This document shows, piece after piece, positions 10,099-62,914 of a DNA stretch of 64,000 nucleotides (positions within the stretch are counted from its first letter, which is position 1; each line of letters opens with the position of its first letter). Made by a program: the position numbers and the translations under genes. Source of the DNA: Bacteroidetes bacterium GWE2_42_24 (GTDB lineage Bacteria; Bacteroidota; Bacteroidia; Bacteroidales; TTA-H9); assembly GCA_001768515.1 (NCBI GenBank), contig MEOA01000001.1, positions 372,001-436,000 of the forward strand, read 5' to 3'. Under the pieces are notes generated by a model, which had not been told where the DNA came from, made no database searches, and worked only from the letters and a program-made list of their open reading frames with translations.

Positions 10099-11871
10099 TC
10101 ATACGTATTCAATACCTGGTAATTTCATAAAACAACTTACATTCTTTTGCCATGGATTATTTCTAGTCAATTGAGTTTTACTTGCCGTAAATGAAACCTT
10201 TTTTCTTGCTCTTGTAACTGCAACATAGAATACACTTAACTCGTCTAAAAATTGTGATTCATTATTTTTATCAACAATTAAATTACAATCAGCCGTACTC
10301 TTGCAATTCTTACAAAACCCTATCCAGTTTGGAAACAAATCCTGCTCCATGTCTGGAAGAATTACATAGTCCCACTCAAGTCCTTTTGCCGCATGAACTG
10401 TAGATATGATAATTTTAGAATCAAGAAATTCCATGTATTGTTTCAAGCCATTATGTTCAAATGTATCTTTAATTAAATTACTTCTATCTTCATCAGAAAG
10501 AAAAGTATAGTCAATAAATATGCGAAGCCAAAACACATCGAGCAATTCAAATAATGCCTTAATCAAAGCAGTATCATCATCTTTAAAAATCTTATGAACT
10601 TTCAGAACATGCTTTTTCCCAAGTTTTTTGGTCACCCTTTTGTTAACTTTTATCAGTTCAATAAATTCAAAAAGACATTTACGATTGAAGCTAATGTAAC
10701 TGGCATCTTCATCAGTAAATAACCCATAAAAAAATAGTATTTTATTATGCGTGAAAGTATCAATGATAAAATTTATGTTTGGACCGCGCTGTTTAACTAA
10801 AATAGCTAAACTCGCTGCTGGTTCAGTTTTTAATGTATTTAGAGAAGCCTGAACAACTTCGAGGGATTCAATGCTTTGGTCTTCATAAACAGAGAATTCA
10901 ATTTTTGAATTTAATGAATCAGGATTTAAAAATGGAGTCAGTGCATTTTGCCTTATTATCTTATCAAGCTGCAACATATTAGGATTAGAAGCAAAACGAT
11001 AATTCTTATCAAGCTTAATTACTTTAAGTTTGAACTTAGTTTCCGCTTTAGATAACAAATTCGGTATAGCGCCAATAAAACCATAAATCCTTTGAAGTGA
11101 ATCTCCTAGTAAAATAACATTTGTTTTTTCTATGATTAAAAAATGAAGTAACCAATAACTAAGGATATTAGTGTCTTGAAACTCATCAACTAATATAGTT
11201 GTGTAATAATTTTGGTAGAAAGTGAGAATGTTTGGATAATTTTGAAATAATTTAATTACAAGCGTTAGTATTGCATTATAAGGTATTGCCCCTTTAGGCA
11301 AAAATTCTGTAATAACAATGTTATTATACTCATCGATTTTTTCATTTAACTTACTTCCTTGAATATTCTTGACTGAGATGTTAAATTCAGACAACAATTC
11401 AGCATCTTGGAGCGATAAACCTTTAAATGTTTGCATTAAATTACTTGGGTCACCATCATCAATAGATTGCAAAGAGTCTAAATTTAACAATGCTGGGTGT
11501 AATTTTTGACCGTATTTTTTTAAAATAGTACGGCAAAAGCCATGGTAATTTGACACATACGATTTATCCTTAATATTTATCTCTTTCCCAATACCCTCAA
11601 GAATTGCGGGAATATTACGACTGACATCTTTTTTAATTTTATAGGCAGCGTTAACACTGAAAGTTAAGGCTAGTAACCTTTTGGGAGAAGGTATTTGACT
11701 ACTTGCAATCATAAATGCTATTCGGCTAACCATTGTATGAGTTTTGCCATAACCTGCTGGAGCTTCCACTAATAATCTTTTTTCAGGGGAGAAAATAACT
11801 TCAAGTTGCTTTTTATCTCCCTGATGCTTTTCAATTATGCGTGCTTTTATTGTTTCTAGTGCTTTATCCAT
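10099..11871 (-). CDS. gajB: UvrD/Rep-like superfamily 1 helicase, Gabija GajB-type
   Basis: This is a helicase partner of the OLD-family nuclease in a Gabija-type anti-phage operon. Motifs in order: Walker A APAGYGKT (37-44), motif Ia LLALTFS, motif II ILVDEFQDT, motif III VILLGDSLQRIYGF, motif V STVHAAKGLEWDYV, motif VI FYVAVTRARKK. A CxxC...C segment (GFCKNCKSTADC) lies just before motif VI. In studied Gabija systems GajB senses DNA ends produced by GajA or nucleotide changes. At 590 residues it is somewhat longer than the described GajB (about 490). Its ATG overlaps the gajA TGA by one base (TGATG), indicating translational coupling. AT-rich composition suggests acquisition. Confidence 0.82.
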   Translation of the reverse strand: MDKALETIKARIIEKHQGDKKQLEVIFSPEKRLLVEAPAGYGKTHTMVSRIAFMIASSQIPSPKRLLALTFSVNAAYKIKKDVSRNIPAILEGIGKEINIKDKSYVSNYHGFCRTILKKYGQKLHPALLNLDSLQSIDDGDPSNLMQTFKGLSLQDAELLSEFNISVKNIQGSKLNEKIDEYNNIVITEFLPKGAIPYNAILTLVIKLFQNYPNILTFYQNYYTTILVDEFQDTNILSYWLLHFLIIEKTNVILLGDSLQRIYGFIGAIPNLLSKAETKFKLKVIKLDKNYRFASNPNMLQLDKIIRQNALTPFLNPDSLNSKIEFSVYEDQSIESLEVVQASLNTLKTEPAASLAILVKQRGPNINFIIDTFTHNKILFFYGLFTDEDASYISFNRKCLFEFIELIKVNKRVTKKLGKKHVLKVHKIFKDDDTALIKALFELLDVFWLRIFIDYTFLSDEDRSNLIKDTFEHNGLKQYMEFLDSKIIISTVHAAKGLEWDYVILPDMEQDLFPNWIGFCKNCKSTADCNLIVDKNNESQFLDELSVFYVAVTRARKKVSFTASKTQLTRNNPWQKNVSCFMKLPGIEYV

Positions 11872-13595
11872 CAGTTAGTTGCTATGTCTTTAGCTTTAGC
11901 AATTAAATCTTTGTAAACTTGAGGAATTTCTTCAAGCTTTAAAGTGAGACCAATTAATCGACCAAGAGGTTGTGATTTATTAATTGAAAACCAAGTTGAA
12001 TAGAATGCTTTTAAATGAGGGATATTATTTTTGTCAATTCCCGATAACTTTAGCTTAAAATCAATTGCTGCAGGCAAATAGTCATACTTGCTAAAGGCAC
12101 GTTTATTTACGGCTTTAGCATCTAATTCCCTTTCTAATTTTAAAGAATCATATTCACAAACGATTGCCTCTAATGTTGATTCTTTACCATTATCTATTAA
12201 AAACATTAGCTCTGCCTCAAAATCGCGCTCGTTTGTTTTTAGTAGATTATGTATTCCACTTGGACTAGTATTTCCATCATTATCATTAATACCAATACAT
12301 GGTATCCCAAATTTTTCAGCAATTTGTATAAGTTGTGGTACCGAATCACCACCAGCCTGAATTACTGTAATTCCAAAATCATCGAAATCAATATCTGCCT
12401 TTTCTCCAAAAAATGGGAAACTACCAAACTCAGAATCACCTTCAACAAATATTGCACAACGAGCAAAAAAGGCTTCTTTTATAAATGGAAAGTGAAGAAA
12501 TAAATGTTTATCTAGTTGTTCTCCAAGCGCTAATTTACTACCAGATACAATCTCAATTTTTTCGTCTTTCTTAAAGAGTCTAATTATCTGTTTATAATCA
12601 TTTAATATGATGCTAGGCGAGTGAGTTGCTATTATGATTTGTCCGATAAATTTATCAATATTAAAAAGTTCCTTTATTAGTTTTGTAAAGTCCTCATTTT
12701 TATTGCTGATTACCTTATTTAAGTATTTAATTAATGAACGCTGCATATATGGATGAAGATGTATCTCAGGTTCATCAAGCCCTAGCACCATTGAAATTGA
12801 CTTTTCTCCATTTTCTTCATTTTCAAAAATGCCACGTTCACCACGTTGTTCTGTAATAGTTTGTAATTTATCAAGTATAGAAAGTGTGACTAATAATAAA
12901 AATTGAACACCATATCCGCTTTTTGATAAGGCTTCACCTTTTCCATCTTTAAGTGATATTAATTTAGGTATCAAATTTTCAATTTCGTTTTCTACGCTCG
13001 CTGAAACATCATAATCTTTAAAAGCTTTTATTTTAATAAGCTTTGAATTCAAATCAGATATTAATCCTTCCATCTCACCACTATCGATAAGATTCTCTGT
13101 TTTTAATTCTTTATTGTTTAAATAACCTTTTACAATGTTTGTAAGAAATCTGCCAACCCCGCGACCTTTGTCAAAATTAATCTCGGCAATCGGATTTCTT
13201 AAAGAATCATAGAATATAAAATTCAAGCATCTCATCAATGATGCTGAAATATATGTTTCTGTCTCCTTATGATAAAATTCAATGTTTTCATCAGGAGTAA
13301 TTTGCTTACACACTATGTTAATTTTAGAATAATCATCTAAGTCAAATAAGTCCTCAAAATGACCAATCTCTTCATTTACTAATTGTAAACCTATCTCTAT
13401 ATTAATAGGCAGAGATTTATCACTAAAATCATCTATCCAGAATGCTCTCTTTGAAAATATGGTATTTAAAAGATTTAATGTGTTTGATTTTCCGAGATTA
13501 TTCTCGCCAACTATAAAATTACAGGTAGAATCAAAATCAATTTTGACAGCATTTAGATTTCTGTAGTTCTCGATTGAAATATTTATAATTTTCAT
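11871..13595 (-). CDS. gajA: OLD-family ATPase/TOPRIM endonuclease, Gabija GajA-type
   Basis: The nicking endonuclease of a Gabija-type defence system. Residues: ABC-type Walker A GENNLGKS (30-37), Walker B with DE at 274-275 (LGLDEPEIHLHP), switch His325 (ATHSPS), then a C-terminal TOPRIM domain with E385 (FVEGDSE) and D438/D440 (INDNDGN). These are the metal-binding acids expected of an active nuclease. The chosen start (ATG 13595) gives 574 residues, very near described GajA proteins, and begins directly with the ATPase strand. A longer frame adds 16 residues that belong to a repeat region. It is followed by the helicase with a 1-nt overlap. The alternative label is a class 2 OLD/helicase pair not strictly Gabija. 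Confidence 0.85.
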   Translation of the reverse strand: MKIINISIENYRNLNAVKIDFDSTCNFIVGENNLGKSNTLNLLNTIFSKRAFWIDDFSDKSLPINIEIGLQLVNEEIGHFEDLFDLDDYSKINIVCKQITPDENIEFYHKETETYISASLMRCLNFIFYDSLRNPIAEINFDKGRGVGRFLTNIVKGYLNNKELKTENLIDSGEMEGLISDLNSKLIKIKAFKDYDVSASVENEIENLIPKLISLKDGKGEALSKSGYGVQFLLLVTLSILDKLQTITEQRGERGIFENEENGEKSISMVLGLDEPEIHLHPYMQRSLIKYLNKVISNKNEDFTKLIKELFNIDKFIGQIIIATHSPSIILNDYKQIIRLFKKDEKIEIVSGSKLALGEQLDKHLFLHFPFIKEAFFARCAIFVEGDSEFGSFPFFGEKADIDFDDFGITVIQAGGDSVPQLIQIAEKFGIPCIGINDNDGNTSPSGIHNLLKTNERDFEAELMFLIDNGKESTLEAIVCEYDSLKLERELDAKAVNKRAFSKYDYLPAAIDFKLKLSGIDKNNIPHLKAFYSTWFSINKSQPLGRLIGLTLKLEEIPQVYKDLIAKAKDIATN

Positions 13596-13619
13596 AGTTG
13601 CATTGTCTTTTGGGTGTGA

Positions 13620-13860
13620 GGGCAAAAAATAGCTCTTTTGCAAGCTGAAGAATCAGCTTGTGTGTTAGAGCTTGCAAATGTGCTATTTGTGTGTTGGATT
13701 TTCATCGGTTTGTCTATGTTGTATCGGTCTTTTTGCATGAACGCATAACTCGTATATATATCCACAAAGTTGTTGATATACGCCCAAATTGGGCAGATAT
13801 CATCATATTTAGGGCGGTTTTCCGTAAATAAGTAACTGTAGCGTGTCATAGGGATTAATA
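13620..13860. repeat. Cassette-boundary-like repeat copy B and hairpins upstream of gajA
   Basis: This contains copy B (13746-13812) of the repeat at 6925-6996, with the palindrome GATAT..TGCCCAA/TTGGGC..ATATC and a second pairing GTATATC/GATATATAC. On the minus strand it ends CGAGTTATGCG, an attC-like end. Nearer the gene are a perfect 8-bp hairpin CAAGCTGA/TCAGCTTG (13641-13660) and the pair TTGCAAGCT/AGCTTGCAA around it. An 85-codon frame across this DNA is the translation of the palindromes and is not a gene. Promoter of gajA not identified. Confidence 0.5.
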
Positions 13861-14560: not shown

Positions 14561-14726
14561 TATCTGGCACTACTGCGTTTGCTAAGACTAACCGGTAGCC
14601 AACCTCCACCAATGCCATCTGCCTCACAAGAATTCAAAAACAGATTTTCGGCTTTCTTGCTTTCCATTATTCAAACGATATTCTATTTTTAGGACAAGAT
14701 TTTACGTCTGATTTCCCCCTCATCAA

Positions 14727-15040
14727 AAAAAAATTCAACTTTTTTCAAGATTTTTCTGTACGGTTTTGTCACAAAATCCTAATTTTTAATTAGCTGATTA
14801 TTCGCTTGTTGTAATCCGATTTTACCCCTGAGTTACCCCAAAGTTATACCAAAGTTAGGTCAAAGTCGGGTTTTTCTTATGTATCGCCTACGGCTGTAGT
14901 AACTATGGAGTAAATTTTATATATAGGAAAATTAACTATGTAAAATATTTGGCACGATTTTAGTAAAAGCAATTCTGTAGCCGTTTTTAACGGGAATGAT
15001 TACTTAAAAATTCCTTCCGGTTTTTCAGTTATTTCTCCCA
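14727..15040 (+). repeat. S element, copy 1: tandem 11-bp sites plus sigma-54-like promoter
   Basis: One of three homologous elements (others at 38285-38530 and 62300-62612). In order: an A/T tract with AAAAAATTCAACTTTTTT, a TTTTACCCCTGAGT block, three tandem 11-bp units (14838-14870; consensus CCAAAGTTAGG), a block TTTTTCTTATGTATCGCCTA, a second block GTAACTATGGAGTAAA, and TTGGCACG at 14949-14956. The gap from the repeats to TGGCAC (14950) is 79-80 bp in all three copies. Copies 1 and 3 also share ACGGGAATGAT downstream. The next gene in this direction is the M48 lipoprotein, 450 bp away. Confidence 0.7.
14950..14965 (+). promoter_or_regulatory. Sigma-54-like -24/-12 promoter (S copy 1)
   Basis: TGGCAC then 5 nt then TAGTA. 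The -24 box is perfect and followed by G as in TGGCACG. The -12 box differs from TTGCA at more than one base. Conservation among S copies supports function more than this single match does. Confidence 0.4.
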
Positions 15041-37589: not shown

Positions 37590-38284
37590 ATAGCAATTGT
37601 ATGATGATGATTACTAACCCTTAGAAGATCTAATCGCTAAAAAGTTACAAAGTTATAAGGTTAAAACAGGTTGAAGAACAAAGCCACCCGATATGCTCAA
37701 TTTTCATTAAACTCAGATCTCCTGACCTGGCGAAGAATCAATTGTCACGGTTTTATAAAGTAGCCTGAGGTTAGTGCCTGGTATTTCGGTTTCGTAATCC
37801 TTCAATTGGGCACAAATAATGGCCACAGCGTCGTTATCTATTGGGGAGGCCAAGGCTACCGGAGTTGTCCACGAATTACAAGAATTAACACGAATAAGGA
37901 CAAAGAAGAAATTCGTGGATAAAAAAGAAACGTCCACAGAAGTGCGCGAAATCAATTCGTCAAATTCGTGAAATTCTTGGATAAAAAGGAAACATCCACA
38001 GAATTACGCGAGTTTGCACGTAAAACAATTCGTGAAATGCAGGAAATCCTGCTGAAACACGGTGCAGCAATGGCTGTTTCTTTACCGCGAATTAACTTCC
38101 TGGCGGTGCGTGCCACTGAAAAACAAATCTTACGTACTCATGTAAAACTAACTTATTAACCAACCTGACCCGATGCAATCTATCTCCCCTGACCTCAGTG
38201 GCAAATTTGCGCTCGTATCCCTTCCAAATTTTCAACCATTTTCCATTTTACATGCATGTTGTCACATCTGATTTCACCCTCTTT
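37590..38284. repeat. Intergenic with short direct repeats
   Basis: A segment starting GGTTAAAACAGG (37659-37712, containing AAAGCCACCCGATATG..CAATTTTCATTAAACT) recurs at 38580-38634, about 920 bp away and flanking the S2 element. A second pair, ATTC(G/T)TGGATAAAAA(A/G)GAAAC(G/A)TCCACAGAA, lies at about 37911-37940 and 37972-38001. Frames here (37713-37955, 37968-38159) come from these repeats and are not believed. Confidence 0.5.
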
Positions 38285-38530
38285 TAAAAAAAATCAACTT
38301 TTTTTTACTTTTTTTATGTAATAATAATCACGTAAATCAATATTTTAAACAATTGATTACATGTTATTTGTAACTCCGCTTTACCCCAAAGTTAGGCCAA
38401 AGTTAGGCCAAAGTTATGTTTTTCTTATGAATCGCCTATTGCTGTAGTAATTATGGAGTATATTTTATATGAAGAAATCATAACTATATAAAAATTTTGG
38501 CACGACTTTTGTAATTGCTCTTTTGGAGCC
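38285..38530 (+). repeat. S element, copy 2
   Basis: Same order of blocks as at 14727-15040: AAAAAAATCAACTTTTTTT, TTTACCCC, three exact 11-bp tandem units beginning 38386, 38397 and 38408, TTTTTCTTATG(A)ATCGCCTA, GTAATTATGGAGTA and TTTTGGCACGA. This copy has the most regular repeats and the best -12 match. The nearest gene downstream is hutH on the opposite strand, so no gene is obviously driven. No N element is found beside it. Confidence 0.7.
38498..38513 (+). promoter_or_regulatory. Sigma-54-like -24/-12 promoter (S copy 2)
   Basis: TGGCAC (38498-38503), 5 nt, TTGTA (38509-38513); one mismatch to TGGCAC-N5-TTGCA. Preceded by the three 11-bp units 80 bp upstream, a plausible activator position. 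Confidence 0.5.
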
Positions 38531-38774: not shown

Positions 38775-40292
38775 TTAAATTCCCGGCACCAGTGAATCGG
38801 GAACATTCAGCGCCACCTGCCGCAGGAAGGCAGCAGTTGTCACCATGTCGGTGAACATGATTCTGTCGTTCTCAACGAAGGGAACTTCCTTGCGATAATC
38901 GGCCACAAAGTGCTCAATGAAGGCCGAAGAGCGGGCAGGACGCCTGAATTCGAGGGCCTGAGCTGCATTCATCAGTTCAATGGCTAGAATCTTCTCAAGA
39001 TTGTTGACAACCCGCAGAAGCTTGGTCGCAGCATTTGCCCCCATGCTCACATGGTCTTCCTGTCCCTGTGATGACTCGATCGAATCAACAGAAGCAGGTG
39101 TGCTCAATTGTTTGTTTTGACTCACGATGCTGGCAGCCGCATACTGCGGAATCATGAAGCCTGAGTTTAAACCGGGTTTGGCGACCAGGAAACCGGGTAA
39201 TCCACGTTTCCCGGCAATGAGTTGGTAAGTTCGCCGCTCGCTGATATTACCCAGTTCGGATAAGGCAATGGCCATGAAATCCATGACTAAGGCGATAGGT
39301 TCCCCATGGAAGTTTCCGCCACTGATGATCAAATCCTCCTCAATAAAGATGGTGGGATTATCGGTTACGGCATTGATCTCGGCCGAGAATACCTTTGCTG
39401 CATGGTTAATCGTATCTTTCACAGCGCCGTGCACTTGTGGAATGCAACGGAAAGAGTAGGGATCCTGTACATGTTCTTTTGGGCGGTTGATGAGTTCCGA
39501 ACCTTCGAGCAGTTCGCGGAACCTCCTGGCTGTATTGATCTGTCCCTGATGACCTCTGATCTGATGTAGCAGGTGATTAAATGGTTCGGGGCGTCCATCG
39601 AAGGCATCGAGCGAGAGGGCGCCGATTATGTCGCTTAGGATAGAGAGTCTGAACGATCTGATGAGGCTGTACACGCCATAAGCGCTCATGAACTGGGTTC
39701 CATTGAGCAGGGCCAGTCCTTCTTTTGACTGAAGAACCAGGGGCTTCCATCCCATCAGGCTGAGGGCTTTCGCGGCATCCATCTTTTCGCCCTTCACGCG
39801 CACTTCACCCAGTCCAAGCAAAGGAAGCGAGAGATGAGCAAGTGGTGCCAGATCGCCTGAGGCACCCAGTGAACCCTGTTCATAGACGATGGGTAGCACA
39901 TCGTGATTATAAAAGTCGAGCAGACGCTGCACCGTGTCGACCTGTACTCCGCTATGGCCATACGACAGGGAGCGGGTTTTCAGGATGAGCATCAGCCTGA
40001 CCACATCGGCAGGGGCCTCTTCACCCATACCACAGGCATGCGACATCACCAGGTTAGTCTGCAACTGCGAAAGGTCTTCACGTGAAATCCGGTGGTTACA
40101 AAGCGAACCAAAGCCCGTGTTGATTCCATAGATGGGATCATCCTGACCTGCCATCTTCTGGTCTAGATAGTCGCGGCAGGCAGCGATACGGTGAATGGAT
40201 TCTGCCGAAAGCTTCACCGTTTGCCTATCGTTCAGAATATTAAACAGGCTGTTGAAGGTAAGTTTATCGGAACCGATTGTATATGTTTTCAT
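38775..40292 (-). CDS. hutH: Histidine ammonia-lyase
   Basis: It deaminates histidine to urocanate, the first step of histidine use. It contains the MIO-forming triad A144-S145-G146 (GSLGASGDLAPLAH), YGINTGFG at 55-62, SHACGMG near 84-90 and the C-terminal SQEDHVSMG region (reads SQGQEDHVSMG). About 505 residues, normal for HAL. ATG 40292 is preferred because residues upstream in the longer frame are unlike the family. Other hut genes are absent from the window. The gene has a leader of about 180 nt with a short upstream frame, suggesting attenuation-type control. Confidence 0.92.
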   Translation of the reverse strand: MKTYTIGSDKLTFNSLFNILNDRQTVKLSAESIHRIAACRDYLDQKMAGQDDPIYGINTGFGSLCNHRISREDLSQLQTNLVMSHACGMGEEAPADVVRLMLILKTRSLSYGHSGVQVDTVQRLLDFYNHDVLPIVYEQGSLGASGDLAPLAHLSLPLLGLGEVRVKGEKMDAAKALSLMGWKPLVLQSKEGLALLNGTQFMSAYGVYSLIRSFRLSILSDIIGALSLDAFDGRPEPFNHLLHQIRGHQGQINTARRFRELLEGSELINRPKEHVQDPYSFRCIPQVHGAVKDTINHAAKVFSAEINAVTDNPTIFIEEDLIISGGNFHGEPIALVMDFMAIALSELGNISERRTYQLIAGKRGLPGFLVAKPGLNSGFMIPQYAAASIVSQNKQLSTPASVDSIESSQGQEDHVSMGANAATKLLRVVNNLEKILAIELMNAAQALEFRRPARSSAFIEHFVADYRKEVPFVENDRIMFTDMVTTAAFLRQVALNVPDSLVPGI

Positions 40293-62299: not shown

Positions 62300-62612
62300 A
62301 TCATCGGATAACCGGCAGGGGTTTTTGCATGATCATTCCCGTGGTGAAAAATGCTATTAAATGGCTACCACTAAAACTGTGCCAGAAATTTTACATAACT
62401 ATTCTTTCTACATATAAATTTTACACCATAGTTACAACAGCCATAGGCGATACATAAGAAAAACCCAACTTTGCCCTAACTTTGGCCAATCTTTGATGCG
62501 ACTCAGGGGTAAAATAGACTTGCAAACAACACATTTTCAAATAATTAAAAAACATGATTTAGTGACATTGTGTTACAATAAAATTATTCAAAAAGTTTAA
62601 TTTTTTTTCAAA
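62300..62612 (-). repeat. S element, copy 3 (inverted)
   Basis: On the minus strand: AAAAAAAATTAAACTTTTT, TTTTACCCCTGAGT, three 11-bp units (plus 62464-62496), TTTTTCTTATGTATCGCCTA, GTAACTATGGTGTAAA and CTGGCAC (plus 62379-62385), followed by ACGGGAATGAT and CCGGTTAT. 79 bp separate the repeats from TGGCAC, as in the others. It points left, toward non-coding DNA. Confidence 0.7.
62369..62384 (-). promoter_or_regulatory. Sigma-54-like -24/-12 promoter (S copy 3)
   Basis: Minus-strand TGGCAC, 5 nt, TAGTG. The -24 box is exact, the -12 box is weak, as in copy 1. Confidence 0.35.
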
Positions 62613-62914
62613 TTGGCGCTTAAATCCAGTATCAAGACGCGTCTATTATCTGGAATTACCTCCATAAAATAGAAAACAAGGATTGGATAACGTTTTCCGG
62701 TACAATTGCAAAGACCTGTTTTGAGAAGTTTGGATAAACGAATTCAATCAACTAATAAAGCCGGACAATTGACGTTACTAAAAGGAAATCAAGGTATTCA
62801 TGTTTTAGCGTGTATCAATAAACATCGCGATAGTTAAGGGTAAGCGGCACCCGGTAAAATTGTTAGTCCCCGAAGAAAAATGAACGAAAAAAAATGAAAC
62901 GCCGGAAATGCAGA
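62613..62914. other. Spacer between S3 and N2
   Basis: No gene or repeat recognised. The matching spacer in copy 1 (14561-14726) is shorter and not clearly homologous. Confidence 0.4.

What the first reader, a model, noticed from the sequence alone, without database searches (positions are those of the whole stretch)
14727..15040. S element: three copies with phased 11-bp repeats and a sigma-54-like box at fixed distance
All three copies (14727-15040, 38285-38530, 62300-62612) keep three tandem 11-bp units (CCAAAGTTAGG-like), a CTTATG(T/A)ATCGCCTA block, an ACTATGG block and TGGCAC 79-80 bp after the repeats, while the intervening bases vary. Such selective conservation is typical of regulatory DNA: an activator bound to phased sites upstream of a sigma-54 promoter. 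No obvious gene follows any copy, so the product may be an unannotated RNA. The -12 box is imperfect in copies 1 and 3.
Basis: partly seen in the sequence, partly recalled or inferred. Interest (0 to 1): 0.8.

Follow-up and report, generated by a model that had tools for sequence, protein, structure and literature searches.

The report
Dispersed sigma-54-type promoter cassette, ~57 copies
The three repeats belong to a family of about 57 near-identical, roughly 320-bp control sequences scattered through one lineage of Bacteroidota; each looks like a switchable promoter of the sigma-54 type, is kept at the same chromosomal places in related species, and would put dozens of unrelated places under one signal.

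Summary
All three copies are there (copy 3 on the minus strand) and belong to a dispersed family: ~57 copies in this 4.3-Mb Bacteroidota genome, at least 42 in a sister species (MAG SZUA-528), 3 on contigs binned as SZUA-381, none in another species of the genus, and only one weak hit among 57 further relatives. In 97 of 100 matches the conserved CTTATG block lies 78-79 bp before TGGCAC. GG(-25,-24), T(-15) and G(-13) stand in exact sigma-54 register in 92 of 98 copies; the usual C(-12) is mostly T. In the sister species similarity between copies stops at the predicted transcription start. The genome has rpoN, 15 full activators, and other sigma-54-type boxes before genes. At least 19 loci hold S beside the same genes in both species, and all 3 SZUA-381 copies are syntenic, although flanking DNA is saturated: evidence of purifying selection. 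Downstream genes are oriented at random; no common ORF, terminator, RNA fold or inverted ends were found. Best reading: a lineage-specific, multicopy sigma-54-type promoter cassette with an operator of phased 11-bp repeats. Which RNAs it makes and which activator binds remain unshown.

The parts
14655..14823 (+). copy 1: AT-rich upstream part of the cassette (with a TGTCACA half-site near 14768-14774)
   Evidence: region -295..-127 relative to TGGCAC; family similarity extends to about -300
14824..14868 (+). copy 1: array of 11-bp direct repeats (CCAAAGTTA-type units), putative activator site
14871..14896 (+). copy 1: conserved block TTTTTCTTATGTATCGCCTACGGCTG
14950..14964 (+). copy 1: sigma-54-type -24/-12 box TGGCACGATTTTAGT (predicted +1 near 14976)
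38203..38371 (+). copy 2: AT-rich upstream part of the cassette
38372..38416 (+). copy 2: array of 11-bp direct repeats (three perfect CCAAAGTTA units)
38419..38444 (+). copy 2: conserved block TTTTTCTTATGAATCGCCTATTGCTG
38498..38512 (+). copy 2: sigma-54-type box TGGCACGACTTTTGT (predicted +1 near 38524); a convergent aromatic amino acid lyase gene ends at 38775
62511..62679 (-). copy 3 (inverted): AT-rich upstream part
62466..62510 (-). copy 3: array of 11-bp direct repeats
62438..62463 (-). copy 3: conserved block TTTTTCTTATGTATCGCCTATGGCTG
62370..62384 (-). copy 3: sigma-54-type box TGGCACAGTTTTAGT (predicted +1 near 62358)

Best explanation
S is a dispersed, lineage-specific promoter cassette of about 320 bp (roughly -295 to +25 around TGGCAC). 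RNA polymerase with sigma-54 binds the -24/-12 box; an activator binds three to five helically phased 11-bp direct repeats whose CAAAG cores start about 115, 126, 137 (and 148) bp before the predicted start; the activator opens the promoter on a signal. About 57 copies put that many intergenic places under one signal. Transcripts are locus-specific: mRNA of a gene that follows closely in a few copies, otherwise a leader or noncoding RNA, or one running towards a convergent gene. Shown by sequence: the family, the rigid architecture, the sigma-54 register, rpoN and activators, conserved positions across lineages, and in the sister species the end of similarity at the predicted start. Inferred: that sigma-54 uses it, that the repeats bind the activator, and what the RNAs do.
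For: ~57 copies in G000 and 42 in the sister species. Spacing identical (79 bp) in 94 of 100; GG, T and G of the sigma-54 register in 92 of 98. The box pattern gives 46 genome-wide hits against 3 for the reversed control, most of the 46 being S copies. In the sister species similarity between copies ends +16 to +35 nt after TGGCAC in most and is practically gone at +50. rpoN once and 15 full activators. Independent boxes in the same register, TTGGCACGACATTAGC 60 bp before an iron-alcohol dehydrogenase gene beside an AcoR-like activator, TTGGCACGATGTTGGC before a permease gene, and two paralogous sRNA-like loci, show that non-TTGC variants of -12 occur at plausible promoters here. At least 19 S loci adjoin the same orthologous genes in two species while flanking intergenic DNA is saturated (core 67% identity, flanks 28-31%); all 3 copies of a third lineage are syntenic with G000 copies. 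A gene starts 102 bp after TGGCAC at the same locus in both species.
Against: The canonical C(-12) is present in only 19 of 98 copies. Direct 11-bp repeats are unusual for Fis-type activators, which mostly bind palindromes (general knowledge). Downstream genes of 150 aa or more are 42 codirectional to 40 opposite, unlike ordinary gene promoters. No transcription data. The same repeats occur in family B, which has no sigma-54 box. Gene conversion between copies could also keep them alike.
Confidence: 0.66

Rival explanations
1. S drives a family of small or antisense RNAs: a multicopy sigma-54-dependent ncRNA array, working like the Qrr sRNAs of Vibrio but much larger and more variable. (A special case of the best explanation: same promoter, specific kind of product.)
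For: Random orientation to genes and intergenic gaps of a few hundred bp. About 14-20 G000 copies are alignable to +350-370. Five loci in three lineages (L023, L093, L101, L134, L204) share a GC-rich ~150-nt downstream stretch, 72-92% identical between L101 and L134 per 40-nt bin. The genome has two other sigma-54-box sRNA-like loci with terminators.
Against: No consensus fold in 33 copies; in the 5-locus set the covariation term is unfavourable and only 2 of 38 pairs show compensatory change. No consistent terminator. No Rfam match. In the sister species the downstream parts share nothing.
Confidence: 0.3
2. S is a selfish dispersed repeat (MITE-like) that happens to carry a promoter, comparable to Correia or BOX/RUP elements; copies are maintained by spread and gene conversion, with little host function.
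For: High copy number, lineage restriction, intergenic sites, random orientation, contig ends falling in copies, recent segmental copies sharing several hundred bp on either side, chimeric copies such as L031/L033 and L140/L146.
Against: No terminal inverted repeats or target duplications were noticed (by eye, not scanned systematically) and homology ends vary between copies. Positions are conserved in three lineages after flanking DNA has saturated. Constraint is uneven and follows a promoter layout rather than decaying evenly.
Confidence: 0.22
3. S is an anchoring or recombination site (nucleoid or replication element), the sigma-54-like box being coincidental.
For: Random orientation; shared 11-bp arrays with family B; pairs whose similarity changes near the CTTATG block.
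Against: The GG/T/G register and the end of similarity at the predicted start fit a promoter exactly and would be unexplained; no recombinase was found associated (none was searched for specifically).
Confidence: 0.08

Closest known systems
sigma-54 (RpoN)-dependent promoters with upstream activator sites, including those mapped in Flavobacterium psychrophilum (PMC9723704)
   Same: -24/-12 box in exact register, activator-like repeats about 115-150 bp upstream of the predicted start, rpoN and activators present
   Different: ~57 near-identical cassettes, 11-bp direct-repeat operator, -12 mostly GT rather than GC, no orientation bias towards genes
Qrr small RNAs (multicopy sigma-54-dependent sRNAs of Vibrio; from general knowledge)
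   Same: several dispersed copies under one sigma-54-type promoter architecture
   Different: no conserved RNA body, fold or terminator found here; copy number about ten times higher
Correia, BOX/RUP and other small intergenic repeats (PMC2229807 and PMC3049150, abstracts only)
   Same: short, intergenic, high copy, lineage-specific
   Different: no inverted ends seen; positions conserved across species; rigid regulatory layout under constraint
BosR sites beside a sigma-54 promoter in Borrelia (PMC3037356, abstract only; direct-repeat detail from memory)
   Same: a further DNA-binding regulator acting at a sigma-54 promoter
   Different: one promoter there, dozens here; repeat sequence differs
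TAACTGA intergenic direct repeats of Beggiatoaceae and some Bacteroidetes (PMC4679880)
   Same: genome-wide intergenic direct repeats of a short unit
   Different: 7-bp unit near start codons, proposed to act on translation

Membership tests
sigma-54-dependent promoter | TGGCAC-type -24 element with GG at -25/-24 | tested here: met
   GG in 93 of 98 copies
sigma-54-dependent promoter | -12 element TTGC with GC at -13/-12 in fixed spacing | tested here: inconclusive
   spacing exact, G(-13) in 97 of 98 and T(-15) in 96 of 98, but C(-12) in only 19 and T in 67
sigma-54-dependent promoter | organism has rpoN and enhancer-binding activators | tested here: met
   one Sigma54_DBD gene, 15 full Sigma54_activat proteins
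sigma-54-dependent promoter | upstream activator sites roughly 80-150 bp before the start | tested here: inconclusive
   11-bp repeats with CAAA at 89, 100, 111 (122) bp before TGGCAC in most copies: right place, but binding of an activator is untested
sigma-54-dependent promoter | rpoN-dependent transcription start about 12 nt after -12 | not testable with these tools
   no expression data; only the end of similarity at that point in the sister species
Qrr-like multicopy sigma-54 sRNA | conserved RNA body with fold and intrinsic terminator | tested here: not met
MITE / insertion sequence end | terminal inverted repeats, target duplications, discrete ends | tested here: inconclusive
   ends inspected by eye only, none seen; homology ends vary; empty sites not examined
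MITE / insertion sequence end | insertion positions not shared after long divergence | tested here: not met
   at least 19 loci shared with G002, 3 of 3 with G060, although flanks are saturated
PEP-CTERM/PrsR sigma-54 promoters | PEP-CTERM genes in the genome | tested here: not met
   no PF07589 match at E<=1

The most novel reading that the evidence does not exclude
A single activator acting through phased 11-bp direct repeats controls more than 50 near-identical sigma-54 promoters that mostly make locus-specific noncoding or antisense RNAs: a dispersed, position-conserved ncRNA regulon of a size not described for sigma-54 in the papers found here.
Probability: 0.3. Interest if true: 0.75.

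Novelty: new variant of a known kind. Interest (0 to 1): 0.56.

Why it matters
Sigma-54 regulons are usually sets of gene promoters that share only a short box. Here a whole ~320-bp cassette is repeated ~57 times with rigid spacing, irrespective of gene orientation, and is held at the same places across lineages. If it is transcribed, one signal would switch on dozens of mostly noncoding transcripts. It also bears on how dispersed repeats become regulators, in Bacteroidota, where sigma-54 is little studied.

Tried and rejected
PEP-CTERM/PrsR promoter idea: no PEP-CTERM proteins. Common ncRNA: no Rfam family, no fold, no consistent terminator, covariation unfavourable. Common peptide: reading frames seen in some G000 copies are broken by stops and non-triplet gaps in others (judged by eye). 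Coding origin of the upstream -1300 to -300 part shared by some copies: only short inconsistent frames in the consensus. Viral origin: no viral contig with the pattern. tRNA or Rfam genes in the window: none. Specific activator: comparing activators of G000, G001 and G002 leaves one candidate, L046 (83% identical in G002, at most 43% in G001), but two G000 activators (L041, L051) and some of the other genomes' were not recovered by that script, and G002 is incomplete, so this is only a lead.

Full report
Observation. The three copies exist as described. Copy 3 is on the minus strand. A sequence model built from 27 copies scores them 118-119 bits (E 6e-36 to 1.1e-35; the copies are part of that model). 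The repeat pattern alone hits the window only in the three copies, 6 hits against 0.01 expected.

The family. The pattern and the model find about 57 strong copies in this genome, two of them cut by contig ends, plus weaker ones. The sister genome G002, whose contigs match MAG SZUA-528, has 42. Another species of the genus, G001 (96% complete), has none; of 57 further relatives only G012 has one weak hit. A pattern scan of ~85,000 genomes found only SZUA-528 and one contig of SZUA-381 (records very near the window may be left out there, and the exact pattern matches only a minority of copies). SZUA-381 holds three copies on two contigs. All three lie beside genes similar to those at G000 S loci L032, L027 and L093, at 76-86% nucleotide identity. 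As the bin is labelled Crocinitomicaceae, those contigs may be misbinned from a relative of SZUA-528 (inference).

Architecture. Across 100 matches the TTTTTCTTATG block starts exactly 79 bp before TGGCAC in 94 and 78 in 3. CAAA cores lie 89, 100 and 111 bp before TGGCAC in most copies, with a fourth at 122 in some; self-similarity of the stretch peaks at lags 11 and 22. GG, T and G stand at -25/-24, -15 and -13 of a sigma-54 box in 92 of 98 copies; -12 is T in 67 and C in 19. An AT-rich part to about -295 carries TGTCACA and other conserved blocks. In G002, overlapping hits between copies fall from 771 in the bin at 0 to 2 in the bin at +50, so similarity stops where transcription should start. 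In G000, subsets of copies are alignable to +350-370 or, upstream, to -1200 or beyond.

Sigma-54 context. The genome has one rpoN and 15 full activators. The box pattern YTGGCACRNNNYTNGY gives 46 hits against 3 for the reversed control; nearly all are S copies. Among the others are TTGGCACGACATTAGC 60 bp before an iron-alcohol dehydrogenase gene next to an AcoR-like activator, TTGGCACGATGTTGGC before an FtsX-type permease gene, and two paralogous loci with a box and a strong terminator (gene names read from the sequences, not scanned). Strict TGGCAY-N5-TTGCW boxes number only five, so this organism seems to tolerate other letters at -14 and -12. In Flavobacterium psychrophilum a typical -24/-12 motif was mapped and its contribution at one operon confirmed by mutagenesis (PMC9723704); sigma-54 targets reported in Bacteroidota include chaperone genes and ABC permeases (PMC12316311). 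S copy L006 lies 449 bp before a long gene that reads as htpG (name from sequence, not scanned).

Selection. At least nineteen S loci of G002 adjoin genes orthologous to those at G000 S loci. By my rough estimate about one would be expected if places were random. In fifteen such pairs the S core is 67% identical, while stretches at +40..+170 and -420..-300 are at 31% and 28% in ungapped comparison. Orthologous cores are usually not closer to each other than to other copies; this fits either saturation under constraint or exchange between copies. Two pairs remain 92% and 98% identical. Chimeric-looking copies (L031/L033, L140/L146) suggest that copies do recombine.

What follows S. Genes of 150 aa or more downstream are 42 codirectional and 40 opposite. 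Convergent reading frames end as close as 119-211 bp. In a few copies a gene starts within 105 bp: one at +102 at the same locus in both species (reads as a VOC-family protein), a signal-peptide protein at +40 (L113), another at +77 (L156). No common ORF, fold or terminator was found. A five-locus subset shares a GC-rich ~150-nt stretch across three lineages, but its predicted pairs are not backed by covariation.

Second family. Element B shares the same 11-bp repeats but has a different core, TTTTTAGCGGGTTTACAGTA, often followed by a TATGTTTG-like box as expected of the main Bacteroidota sigma factor (that consensus is from general knowledge). It has at least 17 copies in G000, a few in G002, none in G001: the same distribution as S. 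A shared repeat-binding regulator is the simplest explanation.

Literature. Four text searches found sigma-54 maps in Bacteroidota and promoter-bearing or direct-repeat intergenic elements in other bacteria, but nothing like this cassette. The library is partial, so this is not proof of novelty.

Verdict. The promoter reading is supported by register, spacing, endpoint, genome content and positional conservation. The RNA reading is open. The mobile-repeat reading is weakened by position conservation but not excluded. Transcription, sigma factor use and the activator are unshown.

Noticed in passing
L174:2011-2230 and L175:1984-2160 (G000 C42:43010 and C45:47983): Two paralogous sRNA-like loci, each with a sigma-54-type box (TTGGCACGCTACTTGC, TTGGCACAAACCTTGT) and ~130-140 nt later a strong terminator (CCGGTTCGCAGTNGATGCGCACCGGTTTT-like); no Rfam match.
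   Followed up: partly
L002-L005, L007, L009, L011, L012, L016, L018, L021, L035, L038: Second dispersed family (B, ~180 bp) sharing the CCAAAGTTAGG 11-bp repeats and also carrying two TTCGTTCAATG repeats; at least 17 copies in G000, few in G002, none in G001.
   Followed up: partly
window 10099-13643 (minus strand): GajB and GajA homologues side by side (E 1.7e-223 and 1.7e-208 in PADLOC): a Gabija-type anti-phage system just upstream of S copy 1.
   Followed up: partly
L172:4953-8238 (minus strand): AcoR-like activator next to an iron-alcohol dehydrogenase gene with its own sigma-54-type box 60 bp upstream.
   Followed up: partly
L031 downstream of S (minus strand, about 823-1000): Tandem repeat of roughly 54 bp, GAAACCCTGAAGGGGTGTAATTATTATAGAAAAGGAAATATC.., running from ~110 bp after TGGCAC.
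   Followed up: no
L002, L009, L021, L038 and L004, L005, L018, after the B element: Short repeats GTAGAGACGCACGACCCGTGCGTCTCT and low-complexity TTTGGC/TTGACA hexamer tracts follow B elements.
   Followed up: no
L046 (G000 C4:14331-14831): Only activator among those compared that is shared by the two S-bearing species (83%) without a close relative in G001.
   Followed up: partly
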